From: Owenia fusiformis
Lineage: Eukaryota; Annelida; Polychaeta; Sabellida; Oweniidae
NCBI GenBank assembly: GCA_903813345.2
Contig: CAIIXF020000008.1
Location: forward strand, 11,993,278 to 12,057,277
Length of the DNA: 64,000 nucleotides
Direction: 5' to 3'
Part shown: one piece after another, positions 28,101 to 61,100 of the stretch
Layout of the letters: every line of letters begins with the position of its first letter
Position numbering within the stretch: the first letter of the stretch is position 1
Notes under the pieces: model-generated
What the model saw: the letters and a program-made list of their open reading frames with translations, nothing else
Databases searched by the model: none
Told to the model about the DNA's origin: nothing
Translations under genes and position numbers: made by a program

Positions 28101-31100
28101 AGATATTTATATTTAACATTTTCGTAATATTCTTTTTGTTCAATACAATGAAATTGTAACATTTGAACTTAAAAAAATTAAATTTCAAAATTAAAACTTT
28201 TGATATTTAAACTTTTTTAAACTTTTGAAAAATTCCCGGGAGCGGGATGGATATATTATATCTGCCCGCATTTGGCCTGGAGCGGGACATATACAATATA
28301 TCCTGCCCGCTCCTCAGATACGATATATATTCCCGGGTGATATCTACCCCAAACCCAATCAAGTATGAGATACAAAGTGATATAGGGTGTAGTTGTAAAT
28401 GATCAATACAGGATATATTCTCTTCAAGAAATTCTGTATTGGAATGAGATGAAGTCTAGTGCCAATACAGAAAATCGAGATAGGATATATCCTGTATTAC
28501 ACTTCAAATCATTCAATAACGTTTTTATCGTGTGATCCTCTGTATTGCTACTGAGATTGTCCCATCCGTACCAATATTTTCTGTATTGTGACGGAGACGA
28601 TCAATGGGGACCATCTCAGTAGCAATACAGATTGGTACAGCACAAGAACTGACCAATCAGAGGGCTTCATTTTACAGATCATACGATAATGGTGTATGCA
28701 ACACATACATATTTCCTAAATACCTTTCTTTGTGTCATTAATGTTGGAAACCAATATTCTTTTAGTCTTCTCTGCTTTCACAGGGTTTGACCTGAAACAT
28801 TTAACACCATATGAATTATTATTATTTATTTATTTTTTATTTCATGATAATTTAACAATGGAATGTACAAAGCATTTGCACTCGACACCCTTAGTAATTG
28901 GGCGTATCAGTGCATCAGTGCTACCTACAGTAGGTAATTGACATGTAAATTCTTAATTGATCAGAATAAAAGACAACTTGTCAGTCATTAATTTGTCAGC
29001 GGGTGTTTCATAATATCTTAATTAACTCGGGATACTGTGGAGTCAAATGGGAGGTTGTCAACTTTAACAAAAATAGTTTTAATTGGTTTTCCACATGAGT
29101 GAATTTTTGAGGAAATCATATCACCTTTACCTTTAAGGTAAGGGATATTCAATTATCAACAGTTGTGAAAAGATGAAGTAAATTCTGTTATGGTTTAACC
29201 CCCCCCCTCCTCTAACGAAATTTTAAAATGTTGATTTGTCTTCCACTCGATAATTTAACAAGATGACAACAATATAGCAGTTTTCAAATTGCGATAAAAA
29301 ATCAGCACTCTTTGCTGATGAAACCATCATTTTTTCCCTCCACCATAATGAAACTAACTTCGTTATTCCACAACTGTTGATAATTGGAGACCACCCAATG
29401 CTCTATCATTTTCTTAACAACACAATTTAAATTGATCTTACAGTACTCTCAATCAGCCTTGGGCGAACTTGGTTCAATATTTGGATGCTCACTTACCTTA
29501 TCAAACTTCTCCAGTTGACAGGAATCCCTTGCAAAAAGTCATGAATGTATATTGAGGGAAAACCTGGAAATGGATGAATCTGCTACATGATTTATAAATA
29601 ACAGGAATAAGTACATTTTTAGCCATTCAATCTATTTTTCATTCGTCTGTTTATCTAGCCTTGATTGAACCAGAGTATACAGTTGATATACCGTTATTCA
29701 GATACAACACTGTAACAAGGCATCAACATGACAAAATATCACAACCTTTTAAGTCATGGTAGTGACATAAAAACAAGAGTTCCGAGTAAAGGATGAAAAT
29801 GAATCTATAGCTGCAACTCTATTTTGAAGAACCAATTGAGCAAAATGTTCAATGGTGTTCAATGGATTCATTGATTTAATACTCTCAAAAATGTAAACAG
29901 AAATACCTTTGGAGTTAAATACTAATAGGAACATTGAAAAGTAATCCATCTTACCATGCTCTATGGAAGCCTGGGTGTTCATCTTTCCGGATATCTTATA
30001 CAAAGAACCAGAGGCATTCTTTACTGTTTGAGAGTTCACCCGACTTCGAATATTTCCTGAACTCCACAACTGTCCATCCGACCTACAAAAAATAAGTAAA
30101 TAAAAAACATGCATATAAAATGAGTTTCCTGGTAATCTCAACCCAGTAAAACTCAACCCAAAGTCAACTCAACCCAGTAAAACTCAACCCAAAGTCAACT
30201 CAACCAAGTAAAACTCAACCCCAAGTCAACTCAACCTCAGTTAGAAAAAATTGGGGATAAATGATATCCCAAAATGTTAATTTTTCACTGAAGATACATG
30301 TACATGTATTACATAATTGTGAATTGAGTAGTTATGGGTTCATTTACTTACAAGCGGTCTCCTTGTATTTTAATTGTGGACCTGGATGGAACAATATACC
30401 AATTGAGCAAGGTTTCTTTAACTTCTAACGCCTCCTGGAAATACAGAAAAAATGCTTTTGAATTACTTTTTGCATATCAGAGGGTTTATTCATAATCATT
30501 TTACTCAACATCAGATGTTTAATTAATTAAATCGTCAGTTCTTCAGTTTGAAAACATATTTAAAATCCTTCAAAATTAGGTCAACAATTGATCTATTTAG
30601 TATACTTTTTGGTACCTAAGGAATATAACACTTTGGGCTTGTGAGAAAAGTGAGATTAATTTCTTTGAGAAGATTATTCTAAAGCTACGTGACCATTTAT
30701 AGGACCCATTGCTTATAAAAGGTTGTTTGAGTGTCGAGTGAGTTAAAATACTTGTTAAGACAAGATTATTGGTAGGGAATCAAAGTGATACTTGGCATAA
30801 AGTCATATTACCATCCAATTCACATTATAAATAAGAAATTTGGAGTAGAAAATAATTCATTGTTCATTCATTTCTATATGTATAGAACATATTTTTGTAA
30901 TACACATCATTTCAATTCACAGTACTAATAACGTATAGCTATACACATAAACATGAGTTATGCTTTCACTTATGAGTGAAATCTCTTTATCTGGACTAAA
31001 TCTGATATCCATTTTTATGCGTTGGAAGAAAATATATTTCTTATAAATTCAGCAGCCATTTTAAAAAATCATTCTTGAGCAGAAGAAGATAAAATCTGAA

Positions 31101-34100
31101 CCAAATATTACTTCTCCAACAGTGCAGAATATTGATCCGTCTGAGAAACAATGAAAATCAAGTAGTATTTTACAATTTTATTTAAACTAAACAGAGGAAA
31201 GGATACAGTTACATTAACATATATCAAAAATACTGAAACCCTGAATCTCATGCTCTTGAAATACCCTGGTTGTTTTGAGGAAAGGGCTGCAATCTTAAGA
31301 ATTTACCAAATCCTCATTTCAAAGGGCAACATAGTGAATCTTGGCCCAAAGGCTAAAGGCCAAGATTTCACGATTTTGCCTGCTAAAATGAGGTGTTTAG
31401 TATTATCACCACCTACTGCATTTAAGTACAAACTCGTTATTCACCCTGGACCAGGGCGGATACCACTATTGCCTGGCACTATGGCTCCACCCATTGCTCA
31501 AGTCTTTTAAATACAACATAAAATATCCTAAATACCTTTATGGGTTCTACATTTGGAGCCAGTAATGTACTTTATTTACAGGGTCACACAAAAAATGCCA
31601 CCCACAAATTTTGGAATAACTTTCTCGGTATTGCAGGAATCTTCATGTTTTTTTATGTGTAGATAGAGTGTTCAATGGAAGAAAGATTGTTATGCTTGCA
31701 TAGCATCAACAACTTGAAAATTTAGAGATATTTCATTGTCTGCGGAGACATGCTCTGACAACAAACGATCACACAAAAATGTAAATTAGAAATCTGTAAA
31801 GTTAACCAATAAGTGAGTCAGTTCATCAAATTTGACAAAATTATTTAAGAAAATGGCTAGATATGACATATTAATGATAAAATATGTGGAAGCATTACAG
31901 AAATGACTTAAATAATGGCTAAGACAGAAATCTTAATTCCCAGAAAACTGCATTTTTGAACATTTTTTGACGATTTCACCGAGAGCATGCCTGGACAGAA
32001 ATCGTGCTATCTCTAAATCTCAAAGTTGTTGATGCTATCCAAGTAGAACAGTATTTTCTTCATTGAACACTCCATCTACACAAAAAATCATGAAGATTCC
32101 TTCATTATTGAGAAAGTTATTCCAAAATAAGTGGGTGGCATTTTTTGTGTCACTCTGTACAACAGATTAATAATTATCTGTATATATTCATGAAATATTT
32201 ATAAATAGACCAGACCCTGGCCTCACATAAATACTGTACTGTAAATTTCACTGTATATATGTTCTTTAATCTTTTTATAATCTAATATCAAAAATGTATA
32301 ACACATCAGAAATGATGGATAAAATAAACAAATAAAACAAGGCATTAACATGCAAAATGTCACCACCTGAGATTTGTTAGACACTGAATACAAACCACAA
32401 AAATACAGGTATAACAATATGTTTTTTCAAAACAAATTTTTGATTACATTTTCTTAGGAAATTATTTAAAATAAATCAAAAAATTACAAATATCGATTAC
32501 GATAACAGTTTACTTTGATTATTGAATTTTCTTTAACTCAACACATGTTTACTCACTTTAACTTGGGTTTGAAGAAGTGAGGCTACCACATTTACATTTA
32601 CACACTTTTTATTTTAAAGATCAATTAAATAAGAAATTATATAGGTCTAAGATGACTAGGGTCTGGGTTGTTATATTTTGCAAAGTATAAAGCCATCATT
32701 CGCATGTTAACATGGTTAACTAGTGTGTATGTTGAATACTAAAATATTATAGTTTTAGGGAACCTAAATGTGAACATCTAAGCGCTAGACACTGAATAGA
32801 TTTGACTTACAAATAGCCAATTTTTTAAACCAGGAGCTTATTTATATAGAGCATCTTTAATTTACAGACCAAAAAAACATTTAAGACACTGGTTTAAGAA
32901 ATATATGACATTCAGTTTATTTATCAGTCTTATATACCATGGCCTCCATAGAAAAGGTCACATGACAATTTTTATATTAAATGTCTCTTTGTTTAGATTC
33001 AGAGCACCCTCCAATCTCATACTTTCTTGTATAATCTCCCATAAACTCATATCTTAATACTCTATTTCTCAGTCTTGCGAATACATCATAAGAAAACGCG
33101 AGACCAGTATCAGTTTTTTCATGAGGTATATGAGACACCCAGCAATTAGGGAGCACAACAAATGTGTACCCAGCAGCTTTTAACTCCATCAGATAACTAA
33201 CTTTATTCATTCCATACCCAACAAAACGTTCATCATATAAAGGAAGCTGGTTGTGTTTTCTTAATACAACATAAGGTTCATATTTAATTTGATAATCTGT
33301 GACTTCATATGAATGACTTGTTTTAAACCATTTCTCATAGTTTGTTGCTTTGTGGTTGTCAGATCTTTCACCATTGAATATTCTAATTCCAGACTGTGTG
33401 TTGTATAATTTCCTAAGCTCTACTTTTGATTTTGCTAGGTTGTTTGATTTGAATGGGTTCTTTAAATACTCAAAGGCCGGGGCAACAAATGCTGTTTTAT
33501 CCAAATTTGTAGTATATGTATTATCGGTATCAGCCTGATTGAGAATATTTTTCAATCGAATTATTTCTAACTTGGCATGTCTTTGAAAGTTAATTGATGG
33601 TAAGAAGTCAGCATCTGTTAATAACAGATACTCAGTTTGTACACGACGCATTGCATGGTTTCTCAATGTATTAATTGGATACTTTTCCATATAGTATGCT
33701 CCGTACAAAATTGTGATTTCACATCTCTGTGTGAGCGTTTTAAGCTTACGAATTAAATAATTGTCGTCATAAATTTGTTTGTCAGATAGAGATTCAGATG
33801 CAGGAATGTAGATTGCTATAGATACTGGGCCATCCCAGTAAGGTAGGACATCATTTAACATATACAGTCTATCAGCAGAGACTTGTGTCACCAGAGTGAT
33901 GTCATTTGCAATGCTAATGATATGATGATTCAATGTTAACCGTCTAAATCTAAATTTCTCAATGTTCGGGAGTGGGGCTTGCTCTGGACATGTTGCAATG
34001 AAATCATTAAGTTTAGGATCATTCTGCATTGTGGCCTCTTCTACAATTGGTGATATTATGATATCCATAAATGCAACAGGTCCCTTAAATCCAGCACAGG

Positions 34101-37100: not shown

Positions 37101-40100
37101 TACATTTATGTTCTCTTTGTGTAAAACTGGAGGACATAGACCATGTATGAAATGAGTAATGTGTATCTGAAAATAATATGAGATTCCAACTGGGAAGCCA
37201 ATACAATTTCTGAACATACAGAAACTACCCTGTAATCAAATTTACTTATACCATTTATCATTTACGCTGTGATTTGTTCAAAGTTTACTGACAGCTTACA
37301 AAGGTGATTTTCCCAGACTTTTCAATTATTTCCTCGATTTTGAATTTTGATGTTATCCTCCATGCAGTGTTCATATTTTTACATTCCATCCTTTGATTGC
37401 ATCTTTATCCACTTTCACATTTTCACATATATTCCAAACAAACTACAAGTATACACTAGTAAAATATTCACAATATGCATAAGCAGAACAGTGTATATAG
37501 TGACTGGTCCTTGCCTTACTGTACTAACTGTATGCACTCAACTTTTCAATTATCAAATACCTATAGGTTCACAGCCAACAACTTATAAATACTTTGGAAT
37601 TTGACGCTTGGATTCATATAACTACCCACATTAAGGTAGTTCTGCAGTAATTTGTGGAAATGTCATTTCAACATAAACTTAACAAATAGGCTATATTTTG
37701 ATTTTGAATTATGTATTCTATAAAAGCATCAAGTACTAGTAAATAACAAGAATAATTAGAAAAATAAAACCCATTCCATTAATATTGGTAACTGTATATA
37801 TGAAAATCTATATATGAAAATAGACTTCATGTGGAACAACCTTAAGGACAGGGTGCATGTTGGGAAATTTTCTGCATTGCTCAATTGAGTCACATGTTAT
37901 TTTTCAAACATGAATACCTCCTTCCCCACATTGTCTACATCTTCCAAGTTTGCACAAAGAGTGCACTTATGTGCCTAGAAAAGCCTTGTGAGAAGGTTTG
38001 TTTTGTAAAATGTATAAAAAATGAGAAAATTCAGTGAAAAAAATTTCTGAAAATTTTCTGATTTTTTTCACTGAATTTTCTTGTTTTTTATACACTTTAT
38101 CAAAACATTCTTCTCACAAGTCTTTTCTAGGCACATAAGTGCACTCTTTGTGCAAAACTGGAAGATATAGACAATGAAGGGAAGGAGTGATTCTTGTTTG
38201 AAAAATAACATGTGACTCAATTGAGGAATGTAGAAAATTTCCCATCATGCACCCTGACCTTAAGGTATTATACTGGCATATACATATAAACAGGCTTTTG
38301 TGCTCAATGTACTGTGTCAATTCACTATGCATTTGCCAATATAAAGAGTCAGTGAACAATGTCAAGTATTCACCATGTTTATATCAAACACACAATTCTG
38401 AGGAATTAAGACCAAATACAAACTACATTTAAAACCTTTGCAATTTTTTTGACAAGCAAGGAAAGGTTTGATTGAGATGCTTAATATTTTCGTAAACTGT
38501 TGACTATGAAACAATTAAAGTTGTACTCAAACCATTTTATTCGATTTAGAGATATTGATGCTATGTTACGGTATAGTAGCCACACTTTATGATGGTGAAC
38601 CATCAATAATTCCAAAAATTCATTTTATCATGATATCAGGGATATAAAGTCAGCACTAGTCTGTTTTCGCGGCAAATCCGATTTCATGTTCAGAGCAGAA
38701 ATTTTACGTCATGTGACATGGCATGTATGGTTGAAACAATTTGCTGTGAAATACGATTTTGTAGATAAAAATGAAACCCTGGCTTTCAAAATAGAGTTAT
38801 TCACTCTTATGTTGAGCCAATTATTGCATGATTGAGGCTATTCTCATCAATTTTGAAAAGGGTATAATATCACTATTGGCTATTGGAATGTGTGCAAATG
38901 TGAAACTAATGTTTATTTCCACTTTGGTTCAGCCTTCGTATTAGTTTGCAACAACAACTTTTCAATTTAGCGCCAGAAGAACTTGGCACACGGTACGTCA
39001 TGGTCAGGTGACCTCAAAAAGTGCGCAAAAATAACAACATTTCAGAGGTTGACAGTCTTATCCTAATAAATCGTGTTGTGTGGGGAAATAGCACAAGCTT
39101 TGTAGTCAAAATAACAAGAGGGATGCTATTTGTGCTAAAAACAAGATAATACGAGATTCTTTAATTGGTTTTAGTACAACTTTAATGTAGTTCTGTAGCC
39201 ACATGTACAAAACAAAAAACTAGGAAATCTATTTCAACATTTAATATGAAATTATTTGAATTTTGAACAGATTCTTATAAACAAAGTACAGGGTGGTCCA
39301 AAAAATGGGACACTCGCATTTCAAAAATAAATATTGATTTTCTTGATGAAAACATGTCATATTATATACCAGTGGATAGATAATTTACTCATCTTTAATT
39401 TGGTACATTTGTGTTCTAATTTATCATAATGTCTGTTAACCAGCGTCCATTATATAAATTATGTCATTTTTGATTCAAAATGGCTTTTCAAAAACTTGCA
39501 AAATAGTCTAAAAACCAAGTTTTTTGTCAACTTTATTTATAATTATTTACATAAACAGATGTTCAATACATCCACCATTTTGATCAATTTTAGCCCTCAA
39601 TTTTGACTTAAACTGATCATATAGCAAACTTGTCTATCCATACAGGGGTTTTTCCCACTAAGTTGAAAACAGCCAAAGTTATCCCACTTTTTAAAAAAGG
39701 AAATACTTCAAAATTTTCAAACTATAGACCTATATCTCTACTTAGTGTCTTTTCTAAACTCTTAGAACAGATCATGAAAAATAGATTAATAACATTTATT
39801 GAAACATACAAACTTTTATTCAAAAATCAGTGTGGTTTTAGAAAACATTATTCAACTTATATGGCAATCCTCTCCTTCGTGGAAGAAGTGAGGATATCTC
39901 TAGATAAAAGCTCAACTTATGCTATTGGGATATTTTTAGATTTATCGAAAGCCTTCGATACAGTAAATCATGAAATTCTTCTAAAAAAACTTGAAAATTT
40001 TGGAATTTGCAATGTCGCAAAAAATTGGTTTGAAAGCTATTTATCTGATAGGAAAATCATTACTTCTTTTAACAACACTCTATCTGAAGAAAATATTATC

Positions 40101-43100
40101 ACTTGTGGTGTACCTCAAGGGTCTGTTTTAGGCCCCATCTTATTCATTCTCTATATTAATGATTTACATAAGGTTTCAAATATTCTTAAATTTACTATTT
40201 TCGCAGATGATACAAATATCTTATGTTCAAACAAAGACCTTCATGATCTATATAGAAATGTAAATCTAGAAATGGAAAAGACATTAGAATGGTTCAAATC
40301 AAATAAACTTTCTTTGAATATAGACAAGACAAATTATATGCTATTTACAAGATCAAAGTTAAATATTGATGAAAATCAAGATTTTAATATAAAAATAGGG
40401 GGTAATATTCTTGAAAGAGTAATGCATACAAATTTTCTTGGAGTAACAATTGATTGTAAATTAAAATGGAATGAGCACATAAATAAGGTTATACATAAAA
40501 TATCTAAAATTATTGGTATTCTGGGAAAGATTAAATATAAATTGAATACAAAAACCATGATTACCATTTATAATTCACTTATATTATCACAATTGAACTA
40601 TTGCAACATCATATGGGGTAATGCATGTAAAACCTTTTTGAATAAATTGCTTTTGTTACAAAAACGTGCAGTGAGAATAATCACAAATTCTGACTTTTTA
40701 GCACATAGCCCACCTCTTTTTAAACAACTCAATTTTCTAGATATTTTTGACATACATAAGCTTGAAGTTGCAAAATTTCTTTATCAATACACAACAAAAC
40801 CCGATGGCTTTCCTTTTGACATATTTGAAAACTATTTTACTCCAAATTTGATATTTCATGAACATGAGACAAGATTCCAAAATTGCCTTCACATGAAAAA
40901 ATTTAGAACAATTATAGGTCAAAACTCAATAAAATATTCAGGTGCTCAGCTTTGGAATAATCTGCCAACTTCTTTGAAAACATTACCTTCCATTAACTGT
41001 TTTAAAAAGAATTTTAAAATTCATATGACATCAACCTATTCTGAACTGAATTACTGACAAACATATATGTAGATTTTATATATTGTTATCAATTTTATTC
41101 TCATTTAACTGAGTAAATATTTTTAAATTGTTCTTTTTTCTCATTTCCATTTGACTCAGGTTAATATTTAAATGTTTTCACGCTGATACACTTATTAAAA
41201 GTGTCAAGTGTTATTATGTATTTGATTTTAATTTTAGAGAATAAATATTTTTAATAAATTAATGAATATGAACAAAATCGCTCCATTTCTTTTCGAGTAA
41301 TAGTAAAATATGTTAAAATGGTGGCCATTTTTCAAAATGGCCGCCTTCTACTAAAAGTGTCATTATACAATGTGCCTTGCTTATAGTATCCACATACCAA
41401 ATATGAACAAAATGGCTCTACTACTTTTTGAGTTACAGCAAAAATCGTAAAATTACAAGTAAAGGCCGCCATTTTTCAAGTGGTACACAGTAGAGGTGTC
41501 AAGTATTAACCGGTTAACCGCCGATAATGCCTTGACCGGTCTGTGTTTTTATGGGTGGTTAGTTGACCGTGTATAATTCTGTTACTTCCCGCGCTAATAC
41601 TGCATGCTCATCTCTTTGGTTTTAAAGTGTCAGTTTCACGTAAGCTACTCATACATGTCATAAGTCCGATAACTCCTTACAAACATCCAATCAGCAACTT
41701 TATTCCCTGACACATTGCTTTCCCGAGCTTACTTTGCACGTTAATCTGTTTGTTTTTCAAGTATCAGTTTCATGTGAGCTACTCATACATGTGATAGTTC
41801 CGATCACTCCTTACAAATATCCAATCAGCACCTTTAATCCCTGCCACATTGCTTTCCCACGCTTACTTTGCATGTTAATCTGTTTGTTTTTCAAGTGTCA
41901 GCCATGTGTAATCAACTCATATTGCAAAACTATTTCATAAATATATTATATGCATTTTTTAATTCTTCAGTTTTGTTATTATTGTTGTCTATCAACGTCG
42001 CCAAAATGTCAAAGGTCAAAGCCTCGCTTTGGTAGTGAGAAAATTAAAATCAAAATAAACACTAATCAGCTGCAATTCTCGTTGTTATGGTGCGTTCGTG
42101 GAGATTCCAAGGGTAAACCAGTGTGGTAATTTAGAGGTACCGGTAGTCAGGTAGTGTATGAATAGAACAGAGTAAAGCTTGACGAACGTAAAAAATAAAC
42201 GCTGATATATCATTTTTCCAATTTTTTTCAACTTTCAAGATCGAAGATGAAGATTTCATTTGAAATTTCCCGCCGGTTAACCGACTTTAACCGGTAAAAA
42301 CATCCGGTTAACTGGTTAATACTCAAGCAGTTAATTGACACCACTAGTACACAGGACTACCAGATTGAAACATGTAATCGTAAAATGAAAAAAAGTGGTC
42401 GTAAATTACGAATGATGGACTACTACTTTCCTAAGCTTCTGGTTCAGAACACCCTCCAATCTCATACTTTCTCGTATAATCTGCCATAAACTCATATCTT
42501 AATACTCTATTTCTGAGTCTAGCTACTGCATCATAAGAGAACTCCTGATTGTGATTCGTTCTCTTATGAGGTATATGAGACACCCAGCAATTAGGGAGCA
42601 CAATAAATGTGTACCCAGCAGCTTTTAACTCCATCAGATAACTAACTTTATTCATTCCGTACCCAACAAAACGTTCATCATATAAAGGAAGCTGGCTGTG
42701 TTTTCTTAATACAACATAAGGTTCATATTTAATTTGATAATCTGTCACTTCATATGAGTGACTTGTTTCAAACCAAAACTCATAGTCCGTTGCTTTGTGT
42801 TTGTCAGATCCTGCACCATTGTATATTCTAATGTCAGATTTTGTTTTGTATAATTTTTTAAGCTCTACTTTCGATTTTGCTAGGTTTTTTGATTTGAATG
42901 GGGTTTTCAAATACTCAAAGGCTGGTGCTACAAATGCTATTCTATCCATATCTGTATAAGTATGATCATCAAGATCTACAACAAATTTTAATAGATTTAT
43001 CTCTGTTTTGGCATGTCTTTGAAAGTTAAACGATGGTAATAAGTTGGAATCTGATAATAGTAGATATTCAGATTGAACACGACGTATGGCATGATTTCTC

Positions 43101-46100
43101 AATGTATTAATTGGATACTTTTCCATATAGAATGTTCCGTACAAAATTGTCATTTCACACCTTTGCGCGAGATTTTTGAGTTTATGAATTATATACTCAT
43201 CATCATATATTGGTTTGTCAGATGGAGATTCAGATGCAGGAATGTAGATTGCTATGGAAACTGGGCCATCCCAGTAAGGAAGGACATCTTTTAACATATA
43301 CAGTCTATCAGCAGAGACTTGTGTCACCAGAGTAATGTCATTTGCAAGGCTAATGATATGATGATTCAATGTTAACCGTCTAAATCTATATGTCACAATA
43401 TTTGGTACTGGGGCTTGCTCTGGACATTTTGTGGTGAAATCATTTAGTTTAGGATCATTCTGCATTGTGACATCATCTACAATTGGTGATATAGTGATAT
43501 CCATAAACGAGACATGTCCCTTAAATCCAGCACAGGCAAGACTCAGTGATATGCTTGAGAGAGGGGCTGTATCTATAGGCAACATGTAAACATTACTTTG
43601 CTGTTGATGGCCTTCTTGTGGTGAAAACTGCAACTGGATTGTATGATTTGACCCATCAGTAAATTTTAATAATGCCATTGCGCCGTAATGATATCCAAAA
43701 AGGTCATCCCTTTTGATCAATATCTTGTTAATACTACAAACGGAGAAATACACTCCTCTTATAGGCGCCAGTTTTCGAATTGGAATATACTGGTATAGAG
43801 CACGAAGTTTTGATGAGCATTGCACTGCAAAGGCAATCTTACAGCTCCCATTGGAGCAGTCTGTATATTTCATCCAGTATTCCTCCTTGACAGACCACCA
43901 TCCTCTTGATAAAGAAACTTCACTGTAATCAACTATCTCTGCTGAAGATAATGTTTCAATTAGACGATAATATTTATTATATTTCACATAGGTCTGATTA
44001 TATTCATTTTGCTTCACATACTGCAGGTTATCCGCTTCATTTTGCTTCACATATTGCAGGTGATCCGCTTCATTTTGCTTCACATTTCTGGTTGTAGATT
44101 CCGTAGTATTATTTGTATGTGGGGCATGTGTTTGAGGTATTTCCAAAGAAAATGCACTCTTTTGAAAAACTGGCCTTCCTAGTATATCAGAATCTGTAAG
44201 AATTGACATATCCAGCATGTGTAGAAACATATGGAGGGTACATGCTCCACAGAATATGACAAAACATTGAAGGACTGTGATCCTTCTTATAAAAACCATA
44301 GCTCTTCTCTTATAATAGTTGATTCTTATATTACTAAATGAAAATATCTGATACTTGTTACTTTATTAAAGAATTATTAATGCTCTATGCTGTAGAGTTA
44401 ATAATATATGCACCATAATATTATGTATTTGATATGCTGCAGGTGAAATATTTCATCATTTTCTGCTTCTGTATTTGATCTCATCTCATTCATATTATGC
44501 ACAATATGCAGATTATACATTCTGGGAACGATTCACCTGAGATATAATATTTCACTCTATGCAAGCAGTCAGGAGTCTCAAAACGATAAATGGTAAATAA
44601 AAGAACAAATAACCAAAAATTCAACAAAAAGATTGTTCATGGGCATGACAGAAAGTGGATGCAAAATGAAAACGAACATCTGTTTTTTATTTAATTTTGT
44701 GCAAACAGGTTAAGCTTCTTGTTGTGATGGACCCTGCAAATTCAGCCGCCATGCATATCAAGGTCAATGGACTGTATTTATTCACCAAGTTTGTGTCAAA
44801 CAATTAAGGTCAAATAGAAAGACTGCATATAAAAACCTTTGTATAATTCTTGACATGTGTACAAATTGAAGAAATAATGAGTGTATCAACTCCATAAATT
44901 TCATGCTTCACACCAATAGAACCATATCTCAACCACAATGTCATGATGGTAGCCTAAAGGCCTCGAGACTGAACAATACATAATACAAGTTAATTCTAAA
45001 TTTCAGGAGAAAATATCAAAAATATAAGATTTTAGTGACATATAAAGGGAATTTATTGCTATACCCATGTATTATTTACAAAGGATTCAGTATAATATAA
45101 TTATTATTTGTTCCATAAAATAAAAATGTAATTTAAACAAACCTTTTTTTAAAAAATTGATAAAGATCTTTTTAAACCACATTATTCAGATTTAATTTTG
45201 CATGTACAGGGTATCAAATAAATATGTTCTCCCCTCTATTTCCAAAAGTATGAATTTTTGTACAAGTTTAAATATTTTTCTTTGAGAGTATTCAGTTCTT
45301 TAGCTCTTTGCATGTCCATATCCTACATAGGACTTCATTTTTTCTTTTATTTAAATGATTAAAAGTTTGTTCCAACATGCATGCAATAAGCTTCCTTTTG
45401 AATCTTGTTTTCTAATTCTTTTCTAATTTTTTCATTTTATTTTCTGTGAGCTCATTTTTACAAAATAATTGCATGAAATAATTTAACTCATTTTTACTGA
45501 GCACATAATCTTAGAACTATATTGTTGAAGATCAAACAGACAAGTGGTTATTTTGCGCCAAATTCAAAACTAATGAAAACTGGTATCCGACTGATACTAT
45601 TTGTAAGATGTCATTGTCATATGAGTTGGATACGATTTTAATGGCGCATACCAAAATTATCTTTTGTCATTATCGGCCATTAATATTTAGTATCCATTGG
45701 ATAAAATTATATATTTGCAAGATGATACCATCAGATAATTTAAAATGCTAAAAAACATATATGTAAAGTATATATACATCATTCTGAGATACCATGGTTA
45801 CCTGATGAAAAGTTACATGGCAATTTATAAATCTTCTCCATGGTCAGGTTCAGAACACCCTCCAATCTCATACCTTCTTGTATAATCTGCCATAAACTCA
45901 TATCTTAATACTCTATTTTTGAGTCTAGCTACTGCATCATAGGAGAACTCTTGATTGTTATTTGTTTTCTCATGAGGTATATGAGACACCCAGCAATTAG
46001 GGAGCACAATAAATGTGTACCCAGCAGCTTTTAACTCCATCAGATAACTAACTTTATTCATTCCGTACCCAACAAAACGTTCATCATATAAAGGAAGCTG

Positions 46101-49100
46101 GCTGTGTTTTCTTAATACAACATAAGGTTCATATTTAATTTGATAATCTGTCACTTCGTAGGAATAACTTGTTTCAAACCATTTTTCATAGTCTGTTGCT
46201 TTGTGGTTTTCAGACCATACACCATTGAATATTCTAATTTCAGATTGTTTTTTGTATAATTGACTAAGCTCTACTTTTGATTTTGCTAGGTTGTTTGATT
46301 TGAATGGGTTTTTCAAATACTCAAAGGCTGGTGCTACAAGTGCAGCTCTGTCCATGTCTGTAGTATAAGAATTATCATGAAGATCTAGGACAAATTTTAA
46401 TCGATTTATCTCTGATTTGGCATGTTTTTGAAAGTTAAGTGATGGTAAAAAATCAGCATCTAATAAAAGTAGATATTCAGATTGTACATGACGTATTGCA
46501 TGATTTCTCAATGTATTAATTGGATACTTTTCATTATAGAAGGCTCCATACAAAATTGTGATTTCACACCTCTGTGTGAGATTTTTGAGCTTATGAATTA
46601 TATACTCATCATTATATATTGGTTTGCCAGCTGGAGATGCAGGAATGTAGACTGCTATGGAAACTGGGCCATCCCAGTAAGGAAGGACATCATTTAACAT
46701 ATACCATCTATCAGCAGAGACTTGTGTCACCAGAGTGATGTCATTTGCAAGGCTAATGATATGATGATTCAATGTTAACCGTCTAAATCTAAATGTCACA
46801 ATATTTGGTACTGGGGCTTGCTCTGGACATTTTGCGATGAAATCATTAAGTTTAGGATCATTCTGCATTGTGACATCATCTACAATTGGTGATATAGTGA
46901 TATCCATAAACAAGACATGTCCCTTAAATCCAGCACAGGCAAGACTCAGAGATATGCTTGAGAGAGGGGCTGTATCTATAGGCAACATGTAAACATTACT
47001 TTGCTGTTGATGGCCTTCTTGTGGTGAAAACTGCAACTGGATTGTATGATTTGACCCATCAGTAAATTTTAATAATGCCATTGCGCCATAATGATACCCA
47101 AAAAGGTCATCCCTTTTGATCAATATCTTGTTAATACTACAAACGGAGAAATACACTCCTCTTATAGGCGACAGTTTTCGAATTGGAATATACTGGTATA
47201 GAGCACGAAGTTTGGATAAGCATTGCACTGCAAAGGCAATCTTACAGCTCCCATTGAAGCAGTCTGTATATTTCGTCCAGTATTCCTCCTTGACAGACCA
47301 CCATCCTCTTGATAAAGAAACTTCACTGTAATCAACTATCTCTGCTGAAGATAATGTTTCAATTAGACGATAATATTTATTATATTTCACATAGGTCTGA
47401 TTATATTCATTTTGCTTCACATACTGCAGGTTATCCGCTTCATTTTGCTTCACATATTGCAGGTGATCCGCTTCATTTTGCTTCACATTTCTGATTGTAG
47501 ATTCCTTAGTAGTATTTGTAAGTGAGGCATGTGTTTGAGGTATTTCCAAAGAATATGCAGTCTTTTGAAAAACTGGCCTTCCTAGTATATCAGCATCTGT
47601 AAGAAATGACATATCCAGCATGTGTAGAAACATATGTAGGGTATATGCTCCACAGAATATGACAAAACATTGTAGGACTGTGATCCTTCTGATACAAACC
47701 ATAGCTCTTATAATATAGTTGGTTCTTATTACTAAAATAAAATATCAGATACTTGTTACTTTATTAAAGAATTATTAATGCTTTATGCTGTAGACCTTAT
47801 AATATATGCACCATAATATTATGTATTTGATATGCTGCAGGTGAAATATTTCATCATTTTCTGCTTCTATATTTGATCTCATTCATATTATGCACAATAC
47901 GCAGATGATATATATTCAGGGAAAGATTCACCTGAGATATATTTCACTTTATGTAAGCAGTCGGGAGTCTCAAAATGATAAATGGTAAATAAAAGAACAA
48001 ATAACCGAAAATTCAACAAAAAGATTGTTCATGGGCATGACAGAAAGTGTATGCAAAATGAAAACAAAAATCTGTTTTTTAATTCAAACAGGTTAAGCTT
48101 CTTGGTGTGATGGACCCTGCAAATTCAGCCGCCATGCATATCAAGGTCAATGGACTGTATTTCTTCACCAAGTTTGTGTCAAACAATTAAGGTCAAATAG
48201 AAAGACTGCATATAAAACCTTTGTATAATTCTTGACATGTGTACAAATTGAAGAAATAATGAGTGTATCAACTCCATAAAATTCATGCTTCACACCAATG
48301 TAACCATAACACAACCACAATGTCATGATGGTAACCTAAAAGCCTCGAGACTGAACAATACATAATACAAGTTAATTCTAAATTTCAGGAGAAAATATCA
48401 AAAATATAAGATTTTAGTGACATATAAAGGGAATTTATTGCTATACCCATGTATTATTTACAAAGGATTCAGTATAATATAATTATTATTTGTTCCATAA
48501 AATAAAAATGTAATTTAAACAAACCTTTTTTTTAAAATTGATAAAGATCTTTTTAAACCACATTATTCAGATTTAATTTTGCATGTACAGGGTATCAAAT
48601 AAATATGTTCTCCCCTCTATTTCCAAAAGTATGAATTTTTGTACAAGTTTAAATATTTTTCTTTGAGAGTATTCAGTTCTTTAGCTCTTTGCATGTCCAT
48701 ATCCTACATAGGACTTCATTTTTTCTTTTATTAAATGATTAATAAAAGTTTGTTCCAACATGCATGCAATAAGCTTCCTTTTGAATCTTGTTTTCTAATT
48801 CTTTTCTAATTTTTTCATTTTATTTTCTGTGAGCTCATTTTTACAAAATAATTGCATGAAATAATTTAACTCATTTTTACTGAGCACATAATCTTGGAAC
48901 TATATTGTTGCCGATCAAACAGACAAGTGGTTATTTTGCGCCAAATTCAAAACTAATGAAAACTGGTATCCGACTGATACTATTTGTAAGATGTCATTGT
49001 CATATGAGTTGGATACGATTTTAATGGCGCATACCAAAATTATCTTTTGTCATTATCCCCATTAATATTTAGTATCCATTGGATAAAATTATATATTTGC

Positions 49101-52100
49101 AAGATGATACCATCAGATAATTTAAAATGCTAAAAAACATATATGTAAAGTATATATACATCATTCTGAGATACCATGGTTACCTGATGAAAAGTTACAT
49201 GGCAATTTATGAATCATCTCCATGTTCAGGTTCAGAACACCCTCCAATCTCATACTTTCTTGTATAATCTGCCATAAACTCATATCTTAATACTCTATTT
49301 TTGAGTCTAGCTACTGCATCATAAGAGAACTCCTGATTGTTATTAGTTTTCTCATGAGGTATATGAGACACCCAGCAATTAGGGAGCACAATAAATGTGT
49401 ACCCAGCAGCTTTTAACTCCATCAGATAACTTACTTTATTCATTCCGTACCCAACAAAACGTTCATCATATAAAGGAAGCTGGCTGTGTTTTCTTAATAC
49501 AACATAAGGTTCATATTTAATTTGATAATCTGTCACTTCGTATGAATAACTTGTTTCAAACCATTTTTCATAGTCCGTTGCTTTGTGGTTTTCAGACCAT
49601 ACACCATTGAATATTCTAATTTGAGATTGGTTTTTGTATAATTGACTAAGCTCTACTTTTGATTTTGCTAGGTTGTTTGATTTGAATGGGTTTTTCAAAT
49701 ACTCAAAGGCTGGTGCTACAAGTGCAGTTCTATCCATATCTGTAGTATAAGAATTATCATTAAGATCTAGGACAAATTTTAATCGATTTATCTCTGATTT
49801 GGCATGTCTTTGAAAGTTAAGTGATGGTAAAAAATCAGCATCTGATAATAGTAGATATTCAGATTGTACATGACGTATTGCATGATTTCTCAATGTATTA
49901 ATTGGATACTTTTCATTACAGAATGCTCCGTACAAAATTGTGATTTCACACCTCTGTGTAAGATTTTTGAGCTTATGAATTATATACTCATCATCATATA
50001 TTGGTTTGCCAGCTGGAGATGCAGGAATGTAGATTGCTATGGAAACTGGGCCATCCCAGTAAGGAAGGACATCATTTAACATATACAGTCTATCAGCAGA
50101 GACTTGTGTCACAAGAGTGATGTCATTTGCAAGGCTAATGATATGATGATTCAATGTTAACTGTCTAAATCTAAATGTCGCAATATTTGGAACTGGGGCT
50201 TGCTCTGGACATTTTGCGATGAAATCATTAACCTTCGGATCACTCTGCATTGTGACATCATCTACAATTGGTGATAGATTGACATCCATAAACGAGACAG
50301 GTCCCTTATATCCAGCACATGCAAGACTCAGAGATATGCTTGAGAGAGGAGCTTTGTCTTTAGGCAACATGTAAACATCATTCTGCTGTTGATGGCCTTC
50401 TTGTGGTGAAAACTGTAACTGGATTGTATGATTTGATCCATCAGTAAATTTTAATAATGCCATTGCTGTGTACTGATGCCCAAAAGGGTTATCCTGTTTC
50501 ATCAATATCTTGTTAAAACTATTCACAGAGAAATACACTCCTCTTATTGGGGCAGTTTGTAAAATTGGGAGATACTGGTATAGAGCACGAAGTTTGGATA
50601 AGCATTGCACTGCAAAGGCAATCTTACAGCTCCCATTGGCACAGTCCGTATATTTCGTCCAGTATTCCTCCTTGATAAACCACCATCCTCTTGATAAAGA
50701 AACTTCACTGTTATCAACTATCTCTACTGAAGATAATGTTTCAATTAGGCGATAATATTTATTATATTTCACATAAGTCTGATTATATTCATTTTGCTTC
50801 ACATATTGCAGGTGATCTACTTCATTTTGCTTCACATATTGCAGGTGATCCGCTTCATTTTGTTTAACATTTCTTGCTGTAGAGTCCTTACTCTTCTTCG
50901 TATATGAGGCACGTGTCTGAGGTATTTCCATAGCATTTGAAGTCTTTCGTGAAACTGGCATTCCTCGGATATCAAAATCTGTAAGAACTGGCATATCTAG
51001 CACATGTAGAAACATATATAGGGTACATGCTCCGCAGAATATGACAAAACATCGTAGGACTGTGATCTTTCTAATAAAAACCATAGTTCTTTTAGTCACA
51101 TTTGGTTCATACCAGTATCATAAAACACAGTATATGTGTATAATATATAGTAATAGAAAACATCCAATATTTGTTACTTTATTAATCCTTTATGCTGTAG
51201 AGTTAATAATATATGCATTATAATATTCTGTATGTGGGTTACTGCAGCTGAAACAAATTAATAATTTTCTGCTGGTATATTTTATCTCATTCATCCAATG
51301 CAGATGATGATGATGATGATGATGATGATGATATGTTCTTTGAATGATTCACCTGGGATACATCACTTTATACATCTATACAGCTTTATGTAAGCTGTTG
51401 GAGAGACTCGTAAACTATAAGTTGGTAACTCTACGGAGTTGCAAATACCAAACAACAAATTATCTATCAGTCTGAAATATGTCACAATATAATATTTCTG
51501 TATAATATAGCCTGAAACATAAGTCTTATCAAAATTCTAAAATTCACAAATAAGAAAAATGCTACAATAATTGTGATTGACTCTATCTAAAATAAAATAT
51601 CCTCGATTCGAGTATAATGTAGCTAACTTTAGCCATACTTTGAAAAGATCTCAAATTACTGCAAATTCTAACATAGGGTGAGCATTATGCATTTGCCTAC
51701 GCCTGAATCTGAATAAAGGATGTAATATTTGGAATCTACTCTAATACCTTACACTTGAGTATAATAAAATCATACTTTACAGAGATCTTGAAACAAACAA
51801 AAATTCCTTACAATGAGCAAAACAAATTCCAACCATTGTTAAAGTGGTGACTAGCTTGAAAAATATTCAGTTAAACAAATTTTGGTCCACAACCAGAGAT
51901 ACTTCCCTAACCCTTACCCCAAACTCTAACCCGTGACCCTTAAGAAGTATCAGCATTTAGCCACACCCATTTCAGTTTCAGAGAATCAGAGCTCTCCAAA
52001 ATGTTACGTCCACCAAATATTAAGAAAATCTATCCACAAGACTTAGTATTAGTTTTTTCTGGAGATATGGAACTGACGGACAGAGGGCTTCACTATATCC

Positions 52101-58100: not shown

Positions 58101-61100
58101 TAAGTGCAGTAGGTGATTTATGAGCTGAAGTGACAATAAAATCATTACTCAAACCATAATTCTCAACATTGAAACATATCAAACATGGTTTCCATGGCAA
58201 CATTATATATTCAGTTGACGTCTCATATTTTAATGTATAAATTGACCCATCTTAAGTGGTTAATAAAAAAGGTTAGATTATAGTTGTTTTAGGTTTAGAA
58301 TTCTGTTCCACTTTAAATAATTTTCAAGTTCATACTTTTCTCATTTCCAAGGACCATATTACTGTATATGTAAAATGGATTATCATATGAATCTAACCCT
58401 ACAAAATCTTCAAAATTTGAGATGGGTGCAAAACCCTGTTGCTTTTATACAAGAGGGGCCTTGTTATGGCAGCATATTTAACCATATTATTACTTAGGAC
58501 TATTTCATGATATAATATTGAACTTGTCTTCAAATTTCTACAAAAAGAACATTTTCAAAGTTATTTACTTGTACTAGTTTACAATCTCCAATGATTTTTG
58601 AGTTTTCTGGAAAAAGTTGTTAAAATGAATAGTAACAAGAACATCCAGCTGCGGGCAGAGTTTTACATTTATCCAATTGAAAACATTTAAAAAATAAATT
58701 AAGTTTTTTTCAGCATCTCTGAATCAAGTAGGATTGGCTCCAATAGTTTCACTCTGAATATTCTGCCATATATAAAGATGTCATGGTTACCAAATTCAAA
58801 TTCAAACAGCCGCGATTTTGTACACTTCAGAATTTGAACAGACAAGATGTGATCAAAATATTGGTTCCAATCTTTTGGATTGTTGATTCTGAATTATAGT
58901 CAGTTACAATGTCTGAAAATAACGACATTTTGACATTTTTATTGTTGGAAAATATTGAGTTTAGCCCCTGGGAGCCAATCCTCCTTGGTCTCCTTATAAA
59001 GCACCCTATGCAGACAGAGCCTGTGGGAAATATTGGGTGCGGAGCATATGAGCGGCGGGTGCGGAGCTAACGGTTATTTTTGAATTTAAATTTGGGATAT
59101 TTCTGAAACTAAGCCGTTTTGGGACTTCAAATATACCAAGATATGTGTATTTGACACCAAATATCAATACAATTGTGAAAATAGTAGGGCAATTCATTCT
59201 ATAGCGACGCAGTGTGCCTTAAACCTTTCCCAGACCTATATATTTTGAAATTATCCTTTTAATACTGAGTCCCCAGCATTCATAAAAATGGTGTTCAAGG
59301 TGCACTATCTATACAAATTATTTTTGCATCTTGGAAGCCAGGCAGTATCTGTGTGATTTTATAAAAATTCGGAAATGTTCTTCAGATATGAGCCCCTCTA
59401 AATATTGGGTGCGGAGCAGCTCCATAAACGTAGCTCCGCACCCAATATTTAGAGGGGCTCATATCTGAAGAACATTTCCGAATTTTTATAAAATCACACA
59501 GATACTGCCTGGCTTCCAAGATGCAAAAATAATTTGCATGGGTAGTGTATATTGAACACCATTTTTTATGAATGCTGGGGACGCAGTATTAAAAGGATAG
59601 TCTCAAAATATATAGGTCTGGGAAATGTTTAAGGCATACTGCTTCGCTATAAAATGAATTGCACTACTATTTTCACAATTTTATTGATATTTGGTGTCAA
59701 ATACACATATCTTGGTATATTTGAAGTCCCAAAACGGCTTAGTTTCAGAAATATCCCAATTTTAAATTCAAAAATGACCGTTAGCTCCGCACCCTCCGCT
59801 CATTTGCGCCGCACCCAATATTTCCCACAGGCTCTGTCTGCATAGGGTGTAAAGGAATAGTATAAAACTCTCCCAACTAATACTGCTATTGCCATCTATC
59901 TTTCAATGTTTATATCAAGTCATTTATCGGAAGGAAAGTCAGTACTTACTTCACTGTCTTTATGTGTTGCCTCATGATTGTTTTTCCATTTACTTCCATT
60001 TGATGCTATGTTTTCATTTTTGTCTTCAGAATCTTCATCTGATGCCATTGATTCGCCAACCCTGGTTACACCTATAAGTGTACATGGTAGCGTAATGATT
60101 AAGATTGAATAATGACACAATCAAAATGAGACAATAACATGACTTGGTCATCACTATGTTTTCTTATCTTACAACTGGTTATCAGGTTATTCAAATGCAT
60201 AGATTCAAAGACATTCATATCAAGTAAAAGACATAAAAGATATCATATGATCATAAATTTTATGAATGATATGATTTCCATCCATAAATGGATACGATAA
60301 TGCACAAATGAGTGTAACAAGAAATACAAATATCCAAGTTTTTTTCAAATGTTTCATTACGTCTGATATGCCATTGTAAAGAAACTAACAAGGATTCCCT
60401 CAGTAACGGCGAGTGAAGCGGGAAGAGCCCAGCACCGAATAGCCCGGCCTCTGGTCGGCGCGAACTGTGTTGTTTAGGACAATGACACTTGACTTTATTT
60501 GAAGATTCAAGAAATTGTACATACAGGTCAATGCAAAAAACGTTCAGAATTTTACCTTTTGATTTAGTTGCAGATTTCACATTTCTTAGGCTCCGCCTTT
60601 TTGTAGGACTCTCAAATCTTCCAGTAGTATTAACAGTGCCAGTGTTTTTCATTCTTGTATTTTCTTTGAGTGTCCTATTACTTGATTTGTCAGATCTTTT
60701 CTGGCTAGATTTAACAGTTTTCAAACTCTGTCTTGGATCTTTTGGAATTTTGTTTTTAGAAATAGATGACAATGCTTGAACCTTACTGGATGGTTTTGAT
60801 GCGCCTATGATGCTAAAATTATGTTCACTATCATCTGAGTCAAGATTATTTTCAGTTTCATCAAAGTCAAAATTATTTTTATTATCATCAGAGTCAGAAT
60901 TAGTCTCATCTGGTAGAACAACTCTAGTTTTACTGTTATCTGGATTAGCTTCGCTTTGACGTTTCTGCACACTTTTCTTATGACTCTCGCGGTTTGTAGA
61001 AGTAATATCATCGAGATGGAGGTGATCTTTTAGACTACGGGGTCTACGACGATCTCTTTTAGTATTCAGAGGGGTTATGACATCATCTGTTTCCACATTG

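What the first reader, a model, noticed from the sequence alone, without database searches (positions are those of the whole stretch)
30435..59949. Tandem array of intronless GT49 glycosyltransferase genes inside one MIS18BP1/KNL2 intron, same strand
The SANTA domain begins at 30434 with phase 0, and the upstream acidic exon ends at 59950 with phase 0, so four intact GT49 genes (32977, 42431, 45825, 49207) sit inside a centromere-protein gene. Same-strand nesting of independent genes is unusual: the nested genes need their own promoters and poly(A) sites without ending the host transcript. The alternative is that the 60-63.7 kb exons are a separate gene.
Basis: partly seen in the sequence, partly recalled or inferred. 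Interest (0 to 1): 0.75.

Follow-up and report, generated by a model that had tools for sequence, protein, structure and literature searches.

The report
GT49 genes nested in M18BP1 intron
A gene for a protein that helps mark centromeres seems to carry, inside one very long intron and reading the same way, four copies of a small sugar-transferase gene; it is a tidy new case of genes nested within a gene, and no transcript data were available to confirm it.

Summary
On the minus strand, 15 exons join into one open frame of 1,523 codons (63721 to 22101) with SANTA (Pfam E 4e-15), Myb/SANT (4.5e-8) and a CENP-C-like motif (PDB 7y7i_K, E 0.002): an M18BP1/KNL2 gene. Intron 4 is 59949-30435 (29,515 bp; the other 13 are 245-1,349 bp) and holds four same-strand single-exon GT49 ORFs: three in a 3.4-kb tandem repeat, the fourth about 7 kb further on. 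They belong to 11 long intronless GT49 ORFs found in this genome and show purifying selection. Copy 3 is doubtful: DSN replaces its catalytic D-x-D. That exons 1-4 belong to the SANTA gene is likely (about 0.88), not proven: phases fit, but seven tests against a recalled human N-terminus were not significant. New member of a known kind.

The parts
63629..63721 (-). M18BP1/KNL2 exon 1, coding part (ATG at 63721)
   Evidence: model; donor AGG|GTAAGT; shares the motif FDALYEASPKPR / FNSLYDASPIPK with exon 2 (1 of 5000 shuffles as good)
62781..62861 (-). M18BP1/KNL2 exon 2
   Evidence: phase 0 in and out
60556..62416 (-). M18BP1/KNL2 exon 3, long N-terminal exon
   Evidence: single copy in the genome; no Pfam match and no PDB match
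59950..60071 (-). M18BP1/KNL2 exon 4 (acidic); ends in a strong donor, phase 0
30435..59949 (-). Intron 4 of the inferred host gene, 29,515 bp, holding the GT49 array
49207..51084 (-). GT49 copy 1, single exon, 625 aa, DAD motif
45825..47702 (-). GT49 copy 2, single exon, 625 aa, DAD motif
42431..44299 (-). GT49 copy 3, single exon, 622 aa, DSN in place of D-x-D; tandem-unit similarity stops at about 42438, at its stop codon
32977..35025 (-). GT49 copy 4, single exon, 682 aa, DAD motif, most diverged of the four
42438..51371 (-). Tandem block: three units with a period of about 3.4 kb; 51371-45844 aligns with 47952-42438 at 92.7%
39612..41057 (+). Reverse-transcriptase open frame (LINE-like) between copies 3 and 4
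   Evidence: RVT_1 E 4.9e-38
59002..59849 (.). 848-bp palindromic repeat, 100 bp beyond the exon-4 donor
30352..30434 (-). M18BP1/KNL2 exon 5, first part of SANTA
29955..30082 (-). M18BP1/KNL2 exon 6, middle of SANTA
29497..29563 (-). M18BP1/KNL2 exon 7, end of SANTA
28724..28791 (-). M18BP1/KNL2 exon 8
27190..27374 (-). M18BP1/KNL2 exon 9, CENP-C-like motif (TRSGRMVKPQLAWWTGQRVKY)
   Evidence: PDB 7y7i_K E 0.0019
25491..26671 (-). M18BP1/KNL2 exon 10, ends in the first part of SANT/Myb
   Evidence: single copy in the genome
25002..25150 (-). M18BP1/KNL2 exon 11, rest of SANT/Myb
   Evidence: Myb_DNA-binding E 4.5e-8
24596..24756 (-). M18BP1/KNL2 exon 12
23342..23514 (-). M18BP1/KNL2 exon 13
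22967..23057 (-). M18BP1/KNL2 exon 14
22101..22229 (-). M18BP1/KNL2 exon 15, stop codon at 22101-22103

Best explanation
A single M18BP1/KNL2 gene runs on the minus strand from 63721 to 22101. Its fourth intron received a single-exon GT49 gene, a member of an old intronless GT49 family scattered over this genome (shown: the family; inferred: arrival by insertion). The resident gene then duplicated: once long ago (copy 4 against the rest, dS about 0.34-0.37) and twice more recently as a 3.4-kb tandem unit (dS about 0.10-0.18). Mobile elements and the duplications swelled the intron to 29.5 kb. The GT49 copies most likely have their own promoters and poly(A) sites and encode membrane-anchored Golgi-type glycosyltransferases unrelated to centromeres; the host transcript is spliced over them (all of this sentence inferred). 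Copies 1, 2 and 4 are probably working genes; copy 3 is probably losing its original enzyme activity.
For: Host: ATG-to-stop model of 15 exons in one frame; SANTA, CENP-C-like motif and Myb in one reading frame; exons 3 and 10 single copy in the genome; exon-4 donor GAA|GTAAGT and exon-5 acceptor TTTTTTCTGTATTTCCAG|GAG fit the consensus. Exons 1 and 2 share a motif (1 of 5000 shuffles as good), which ties those two to one gene. Array: PF13896 in 4 of 4; 11 long intronless GT49 ORFs of 568-697 aa in the genome (such counts are lower bounds); the four array members group with support 88/89, and with the C8:36.8 Mb copy at 99/99; tandem period; synonymous changes exceed non-synonymous ones per site in 6 of 6 array pairs, Fisher p 0.0009 to 7e-17.
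Against: No transcript evidence of any kind. Exons 1-4 match no Pfam family; exons 1-3 match no M18BP1 chain in the PDB (exon 4 was not searched there). Seven tests against a recalled human M18BP1 N-terminus, five alignments and two motif scans, were not significant. S/T-P sites are as enriched in residues 720-1523 as in 1-260, so they do not mark the N-terminus. The T-over-A skew of the other introns (0.057) is absent from four of the five spacers tested in intron 4. Sense poly(A) hexamers are not depleted in intron 4: AATAAA 44 sense and 46 antisense, ATTAAA 43 and 23. Exon 4 read through its donor stops after nine codons, with an AATAAA 265 nt beyond the donor, so a short separate gene is possible. 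Within the array dN/dS (0.32-0.49) is higher than to the outside copy (0.27-0.31), and copy 2 has 28 non-synonymous against 10 synonymous changed codons where copy 1 has 17 and 17: constraint may have relaxed.
Confidence: 0.8

Rival explanations
1. Two genes, not one: exons 1-4 are a separate gene ending upstream of the array, and the SANTA gene has its own 5' exon(s) between 30.4 and 60 kb. The GT49 array would then be intergenic.
For: Exons 1-4 match nothing known in the searches made; seven non-significant tests against the recalled human N-terminus; a stop nine codons into the read-through of exon 4 and an AATAAA 265 nt after its donor; strand skew of the spacers unlike that of the other introns.
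Against: Exon 4 ends at a strong donor in the phase that exon 5 needs. Exon 5 has no Met, so it needs an upstream coding exon, and of the ORFs of 60 aa or more between 30.4 and 60 kb other than GT49 none looks like one (by eye; shorter exons are not listed there). A long region before SANTA is usual in vertebrate M18BP1 (about 380 residues in human: recalled).
Confidence: 0.12
2. The GT49 ORFs are not independent genes but alternative last exons of the host transcript: host promoter, host 5' exons, GT49 3' end.
For: Same strand; each ORF is single-exon; the host transcript would pass all four.
Against: Seven dispersed family members have the same single-exon form elsewhere. Sequence upstream of the ATG, up to about 170 bp, is shared between the C8:36.8 Mb copy and copies 2 and 3, and in a separate piece copy 1, but not copy 4. 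No splice acceptor was seen just upstream of the ATGs (300 bases of each read by eye, not scored).
Confidence: 0.06
3. Only some of the four ORFs are functional genes; copy 3 is a young pseudogene kept open by chance.
For: DSN instead of D-x-D, in 1 of 11 family members; 42 non-synonymous and 17 synonymous changed codons on its branch against 10 and 9 on its sister's; the tandem unit breaks off at its stop codon, so it lacks the 3' flank of copies 1 and 2.
Against: The branch contrast is not significant (Fisher p 0.17); dN/dS against its sister is 0.49 with synonymous excess p 0.0009; in a simulation 62 random substitutions, about as many as on its branch, left an ORF of this kind open in 3.6% of 2000 runs, so chance openness over the whole branch is unlikely.
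Confidence: 0.35

Closest known systems
[quoted passage not shown]
   Same: Many paralogues in one orientation inside a single large host intron
   Different: Opposite strand to the host; conserved in four insect species; spans 80.9 kb in Drosophila
TipE cluster in the last intron of CG18675 in insects (PMC3240667, passages)
   Same: Paralogues, one of them called a retrogene, nested together in one intron; expression distinct from the host's
   Different: Mixed strands; an unrelated gene among them in flies; kept in most insects studied, lost from the intron in two; expression data exist
H13/Mcts2 in mouse (PMC13309782, abstract and introduction)
   Same: Retrocopy in the fourth intron of a host gene; a model for interference between nested and host transcription
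   Different: One nested gene; imprinted CpG-island promoter; mechanism tested experimentally
MOB2 with KRTAP5-1 to -6 in human (PMC4394429, passages)
   Same: Several paralogues within one host gene
   Different: Orientation relative to the host, and whether they share one intron, is not clear from the passage I saw
B4GAT1 and LARGE (GT49 enzymes of dystroglycan glycosylation)
   Same: PF13896 domain; copy 1 aligns with the GT49 domain of LARGE1 (PDB 7zvj, E 1.3e-43), the DAD lining up with its D-x-D
   Different: The best-scoring GT49 gene of this genome (C8:24.98 Mb) has its domain on at least two exons and its match to copy 1 is 36% identical; the substrate of the intronless family is unknown
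M18BP1/KNL2 of chicken and Xenopus (PMC13021935 and PMC4830207, passages)
   Same: SANTA, SANT and CENP-C motif in one protein
   Different: N-terminal region here showed no significant similarity in tests with a recalled human sequence; chicken and frog N-termini were not compared

Membership tests
M18BP1/KNL2 | SANTA domain | tested here: met
   PF09133 E 4.3e-15, 56.4 bits against a cut-off of 21; PDB 9r6h E 3.8e-5
M18BP1/KNL2 | SANT/Myb domain C-terminal to SANTA | tested here: met
   PF00249 E 4.5e-8, 33.5 bits against a cut-off of 24.4
M18BP1/KNL2 | CENP-C-like motif (non-mammalian members) | tested here: met
   PDB 7y7i_K E 0.0019; that this chain is chicken KNL2 is recalled, the call names it Myb-like domain-containing protein
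M18BP1/KNL2 | Mis18-binding N-terminal region, here exons 1-4 | tested here: inconclusive
   Seven tests against a recalled human N-terminus not significant; S/T-P sites 9 against 3.6 expected in residues 1-260, but also 12 against 5.4 in residues 720-1523
GT49 glycosyltransferases (PF13896) | GT49 domain | tested here: met
   4 of 4 over the curated cut-off
GT49 glycosyltransferases (PF13896) | D-x-D metal-binding motif | tested here: inconclusive
   Met in copies 1, 2 and 4, not met in copy 3 (DSN); 10 of 11 family members have it
GT49 glycosyltransferases (PF13896) | Type II membrane anchor | not tested
   A hydrophobic stretch follows the first Met in 4 of 4 (by eye); no predictor was run
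Nested genes, same strand | Lies wholly within one intron of a host gene | tested here: inconclusive
   True if exon 4 joins exon 5; no transcript data
Nested genes, same strand | Own promoter and poly(A) site | not testable with these tools
   First AATAAA 383, 384, 727 and 56 nt after the stops of copies 1-4, but 44 occur in 29.5 kb
Retrogenes | No intron where a related gene has one | tested here: met
   The domain of the gene in L008 is split over two open frames; the 11 long ORFs run through that region unbroken. Read by eye; the exact splice sites of L008 were not determined and its parenthood is not shown
Retrogenes | Poly(A) tract and target-site duplication | not tested
   The nearest outside copy is at dS 0.45-0.53, so such marks are not expected to survive

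The most novel reading that the evidence does not exclude
The array acts on its host: when GT49 copies are transcribed, the polymerase on M18BP1 stops early and the host mRNA ends in intron 4, giving a SANTA-less N-terminal isoform (exons 1-4 plus nine codons, with an AATAAA 265 nt beyond the exon-4 donor). Differentiated cells that make GT49 enzymes would thereby lose full-length M18BP1 and CENP-A loading. This would be the H13/Mcts2 kind of interference on a centromere gene, multiplied by a tandem array.
Probability: 0.07. Interest if true: 0.65.

Novelty: new member of a known kind. Interest (0 to 1): 0.3.

Why it matters
If confirmed by cDNA, this is a clean natural test of how a long host transcript gets past several same-strand genes, with a cell-cycle protein of the centromere as the host. 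It also records a small intronless expansion of GT49 in one animal genome. As a kind of arrangement it is known; the strand, the number of copies and the host make it a useful rather than a surprising case.

Tried and rejected
Exons 1-4 as a recognisable Mis18-binding N-terminus: by eye MNTP...FDALYEASPKP looked like a recalled human N-terminus. Seven tests on the recalled human sequence were not significant: four local alignments (1154 of 2000, 81 of 1000, 100 of 1000 and 61 of 200 shuffles as good), one alignment anchored at the N-termini (4623 of 5000), and two motif scans (1923 of 3000 on residues 1-389 as typed; 1287 of 3000 on residues 1-140). I dropped that argument.

PDB search with the exon 1-2 peptide and the start of exon 3: three matches up to E 10, the best a lysozyme entry at E 0.012, the others TFIIB, none M18BP1. 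PDB search with exon 3: none. Exon 4 was not searched in the PDB.

SANTA searched in the whole genome by profile: no match at E 0.001; the domain is split over exons and no control rang, so this is not evidence of absence.

Yippee/Mis18 in the genome: three matches; the one read in full (L010) looks like a YPEL5-type protein by recall; the other two were not read. It says nothing on Mis18.

Strand skews and poly(A) hexamers of intron 4 gave no support for a single transcription unit.

Not tested: whether the seven other intronless GT49 genes are nested too; the identity of the organism; synteny (the tool holds no relatives of this genome).

Searches for the arrangement in print: (15 of 61 papers listed; 12 of 12; 9 of 9), 33 different papers in all. 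I saw passages or sections of six of them (PMC4394429, PMC3192792, PMC13309782, PMC3240667, PMC4582122, PMC10295696) and of the rest only title and start of abstract. None of what I saw mentions GT49 genes in M18BP1. PMC4582122 and PMC10295696 (which lists one GT49 in a snail) gave nothing further that I used.
Full report
What was checked. The window is one stretch of a 498-Mb genome, contig C8:11993278-12057277, with no N in it. On the minus strand I placed exon borders by eye and joined them in a script: 15 coding exons from an ATG at 63721 to a stop at 22101, 1,523 codons, no stop inside. All 14 introns are GT-AG; borders were chosen to be so and in frame, so that is partly by construction. 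Intron 4 is 59949-30435, 29,515 bp; the other 13 are 245-1,349 bp.

The host. Its middle part matches SANTA (PF09133, E 4.3e-15) and its later part Myb_DNA-binding (PF00249, E 4.5e-8). The SANTA part matches Mis18-binding protein 1 in PDB 9r6h (E 3.8e-5). Between the two lies TRSGRMVKPQLAWWTGQRVKY, whose best PDB match is 7y7i_K (E 0.0019); I recall that chain as the CENP-C motif of chicken KNL2. M18BP1 of vertebrates other than mammals carries such a motif (passages of PMC4830207 and PMC13021935). So the 3' part of the gene is an M18BP1/KNL2 beyond reasonable doubt.

One gene or two. For one gene: exon 4 ends at GAA|GTAAGT in phase 0 and exon 5 begins in phase 0 after a good acceptor; exon 5 has no Met, so it needs a coding exon upstream; of the minus-strand ORFs of 60 aa or more between 30.4 and 60 kb none besides the GT49s looks like that exon (by eye; shorter exons would not be listed); exons 3 and 10 are single copy in the genome; exons 1 and 2 share a motif (1 of 5000 shuffles as good), which ties those two together. 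Against, or silent: exons 1-4 match no Pfam family, and exons 1-3 no M18BP1 chain in the PDB. Human M18BP1 binds Mis18 through its first 140 residues under CDK control (passages of PMC5245964); here S/T-P sites are 9 against 3.6 expected in residues 1-260, but also 12 against 5.4 in residues 720-1523 and 3 against 3.5 in between, so they do not single out the N-terminus. The strand skew of four of five spacers of intron 4 does not resemble that of the other introns. I put one gene at about 0.88.

The array. 4 of 4 ORFs match PF13896 (E 4e-42 to 5e-47), and copy 1 aligns with the GT49 domain of LARGE1 (PDB 7zvj, E 1.3e-43). A genome search found 38 matches to the profile (a lower bound). Among them are 11 long single-frame ORFs of 568-697 aa: the four here and seven elsewhere on C1, C5, C6, C8 and C11; a protein search found the same 11. 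One further gene, with pieces at C8:24975980 and 24982132, matches the profile best and has its domain on at least two exons. The 11 run through that split region without a break (by eye), as copies made through RNA would, though the event must be old: the best match between copy 1 and that gene is 36% identical.

History. In the tree of 12 sequences (the program warns of the long branch of the outgroup) copies 2 and 3 are sisters (100/99), copy 1 joins them (99/99), then copy 4 (88/89), then the copy at C8:36.8 Mb (99/99). Copies 1-3 lie in a tandem repeat with a 3.4-kb period: 51371-45844 against 47952-42438 at 92.7%. Synonymous distances are 0.10-0.18 among copies 1-3, 0.34-0.37 to copy 4, and 0.45-0.53 to the C8:36.8 Mb copy. 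The simplest story is one arrival in the intron and three local duplications. Similarity to the outside copy reaches about 170 bp upstream of the ATG for copies 2 and 3, in a separate piece for copy 1, and hardly beyond the ATG for copy 4.

Are they working genes? In 6 of 6 array pairs synonymous changes exceed non-synonymous ones per site (Fisher p 0.0009 to 7e-17; dN/dS 0.32-0.49). These ratios are higher than those to the outside copy (0.27-0.31). With an outgroup, changed codons (non-synonymous/synonymous) are 42/17 for copy 3 and 10/9 for copy 2 since they parted; 28/10 for copy 2 and 17/17 for copy 1 since those parted; 56/33 for copy 4 and 22/19 for copy 1. So constraint may have relaxed in more than one copy. 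Simulated random substitutions left an ORF open in 3.6% (62 changes in copy 2's sequence), 13% (34, copy 1) and 0.5% (95, copy 4) of 2000 runs each. Copy 3 stands out by DSN in place of the D-x-D that the other 10 of 11 have and by the repeat unit breaking off at its stop codon, so that it lacks the 3' flank that copies 1 and 2 share; its branch contrast with copy 2 is not significant (p 0.17). I read it as a copy losing its original activity rather than as a plain pseudogene. The first AATAAA lies 383, 384, 727 and 56 nt after the stops of copies 1, 2, 3 and 4, but there are 44 sense AATAAA in 29.5 kb (46 antisense; ATTAAA 43 and 23), so this is no evidence of poly(A) sites.

How unusual. Passages of PMC3192792 give 63% of human nested genes on the opposite strand and 41% with a single exon, so the same strand is a large minority; the same passages caution that of 53 same-strand protein-coding cases 22 were most likely splice variants of the host. 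Passages of PMC4394429 give about 10% of Drosophila and about 1% of human genes as nested, two thirds on the opposite strand. Clusters of paralogues in one host intron are known: GMC oxidoreductases in Flo-2, opposite strand, and TipE genes in CG18675, mixed strands; KRTAP5 genes lie within MOB2. I did not see, in the listings (33 papers, six of them looked into), a same-strand array like this one, but those listings are short.

How it probably works. Inferred: the GT49 copies are separate transcription units, and the host transcript is spliced over the 29.5-kb intron when they are silent. Work on H13/Mcts2 (abstract and introduction of PMC13309782) shows that an active nested gene can make the host end early in an intron. 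The same could happen here: read through its donor, exon 4 stops after nine codons, and an AATAAA lies 265 nt beyond the donor. This is the most novel reading left open and is untested.

Verdict. A real arrangement, correctly read from raw sequence in its coordinates; likely same-strand nesting of a small paralogue array in a centromere-protein gene; a known kind of gene organisation, one doubtful copy, and no transcript proof.

Noticed in passing
59002-59849: An 848-bp palindrome (arms about 417 bp, 94-95% alike). One arm (59430-59849) has 40 scored places in the genome at 99-100% identity, its own included, out of 852 first-look candidates: a foldback element whose near-identical copies suggest recent spread. 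It sits 100 bp from the exon-4 donor.
   Followed up: partly
36072-36835, 37839-38266, 35257-35545, 35614-35993, 31577-32159, 52862-53050: Six further self-complementary stretches in intron 4 (69-89% identical to their own reverse complement), probably older foldback or MITE-like elements.
   Followed up: no
9102-11465 (-): Intronless 787-aa open frame with several repeats of roughly 40-45 aa (HGAEFVHTHT...; by eye) followed by hydrophobic segments; no Pfam match at E 0.05.
   Followed up: no
G000 C8:24953335 and C8:24975980 (loci L003, L008): An intronless GT49 gene lies about 22 kb from the split GT49 gene that matches the profile best, on the opposite strand.
   Followed up: no
20600-19775 (-): Two open frames that repeat the same stretch (NYNGENTDN.DLFDGLK.G.SIHLINQKFEKIN...), perhaps part of a mobile element beyond the 3' end of the host gene.
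   Followed up: no
15617-16351 (+): Open frame of 244 aa on the plus strand, polar, possibly an exon of a neighbouring gene; no Pfam match at E 0.05.
   Followed up: no
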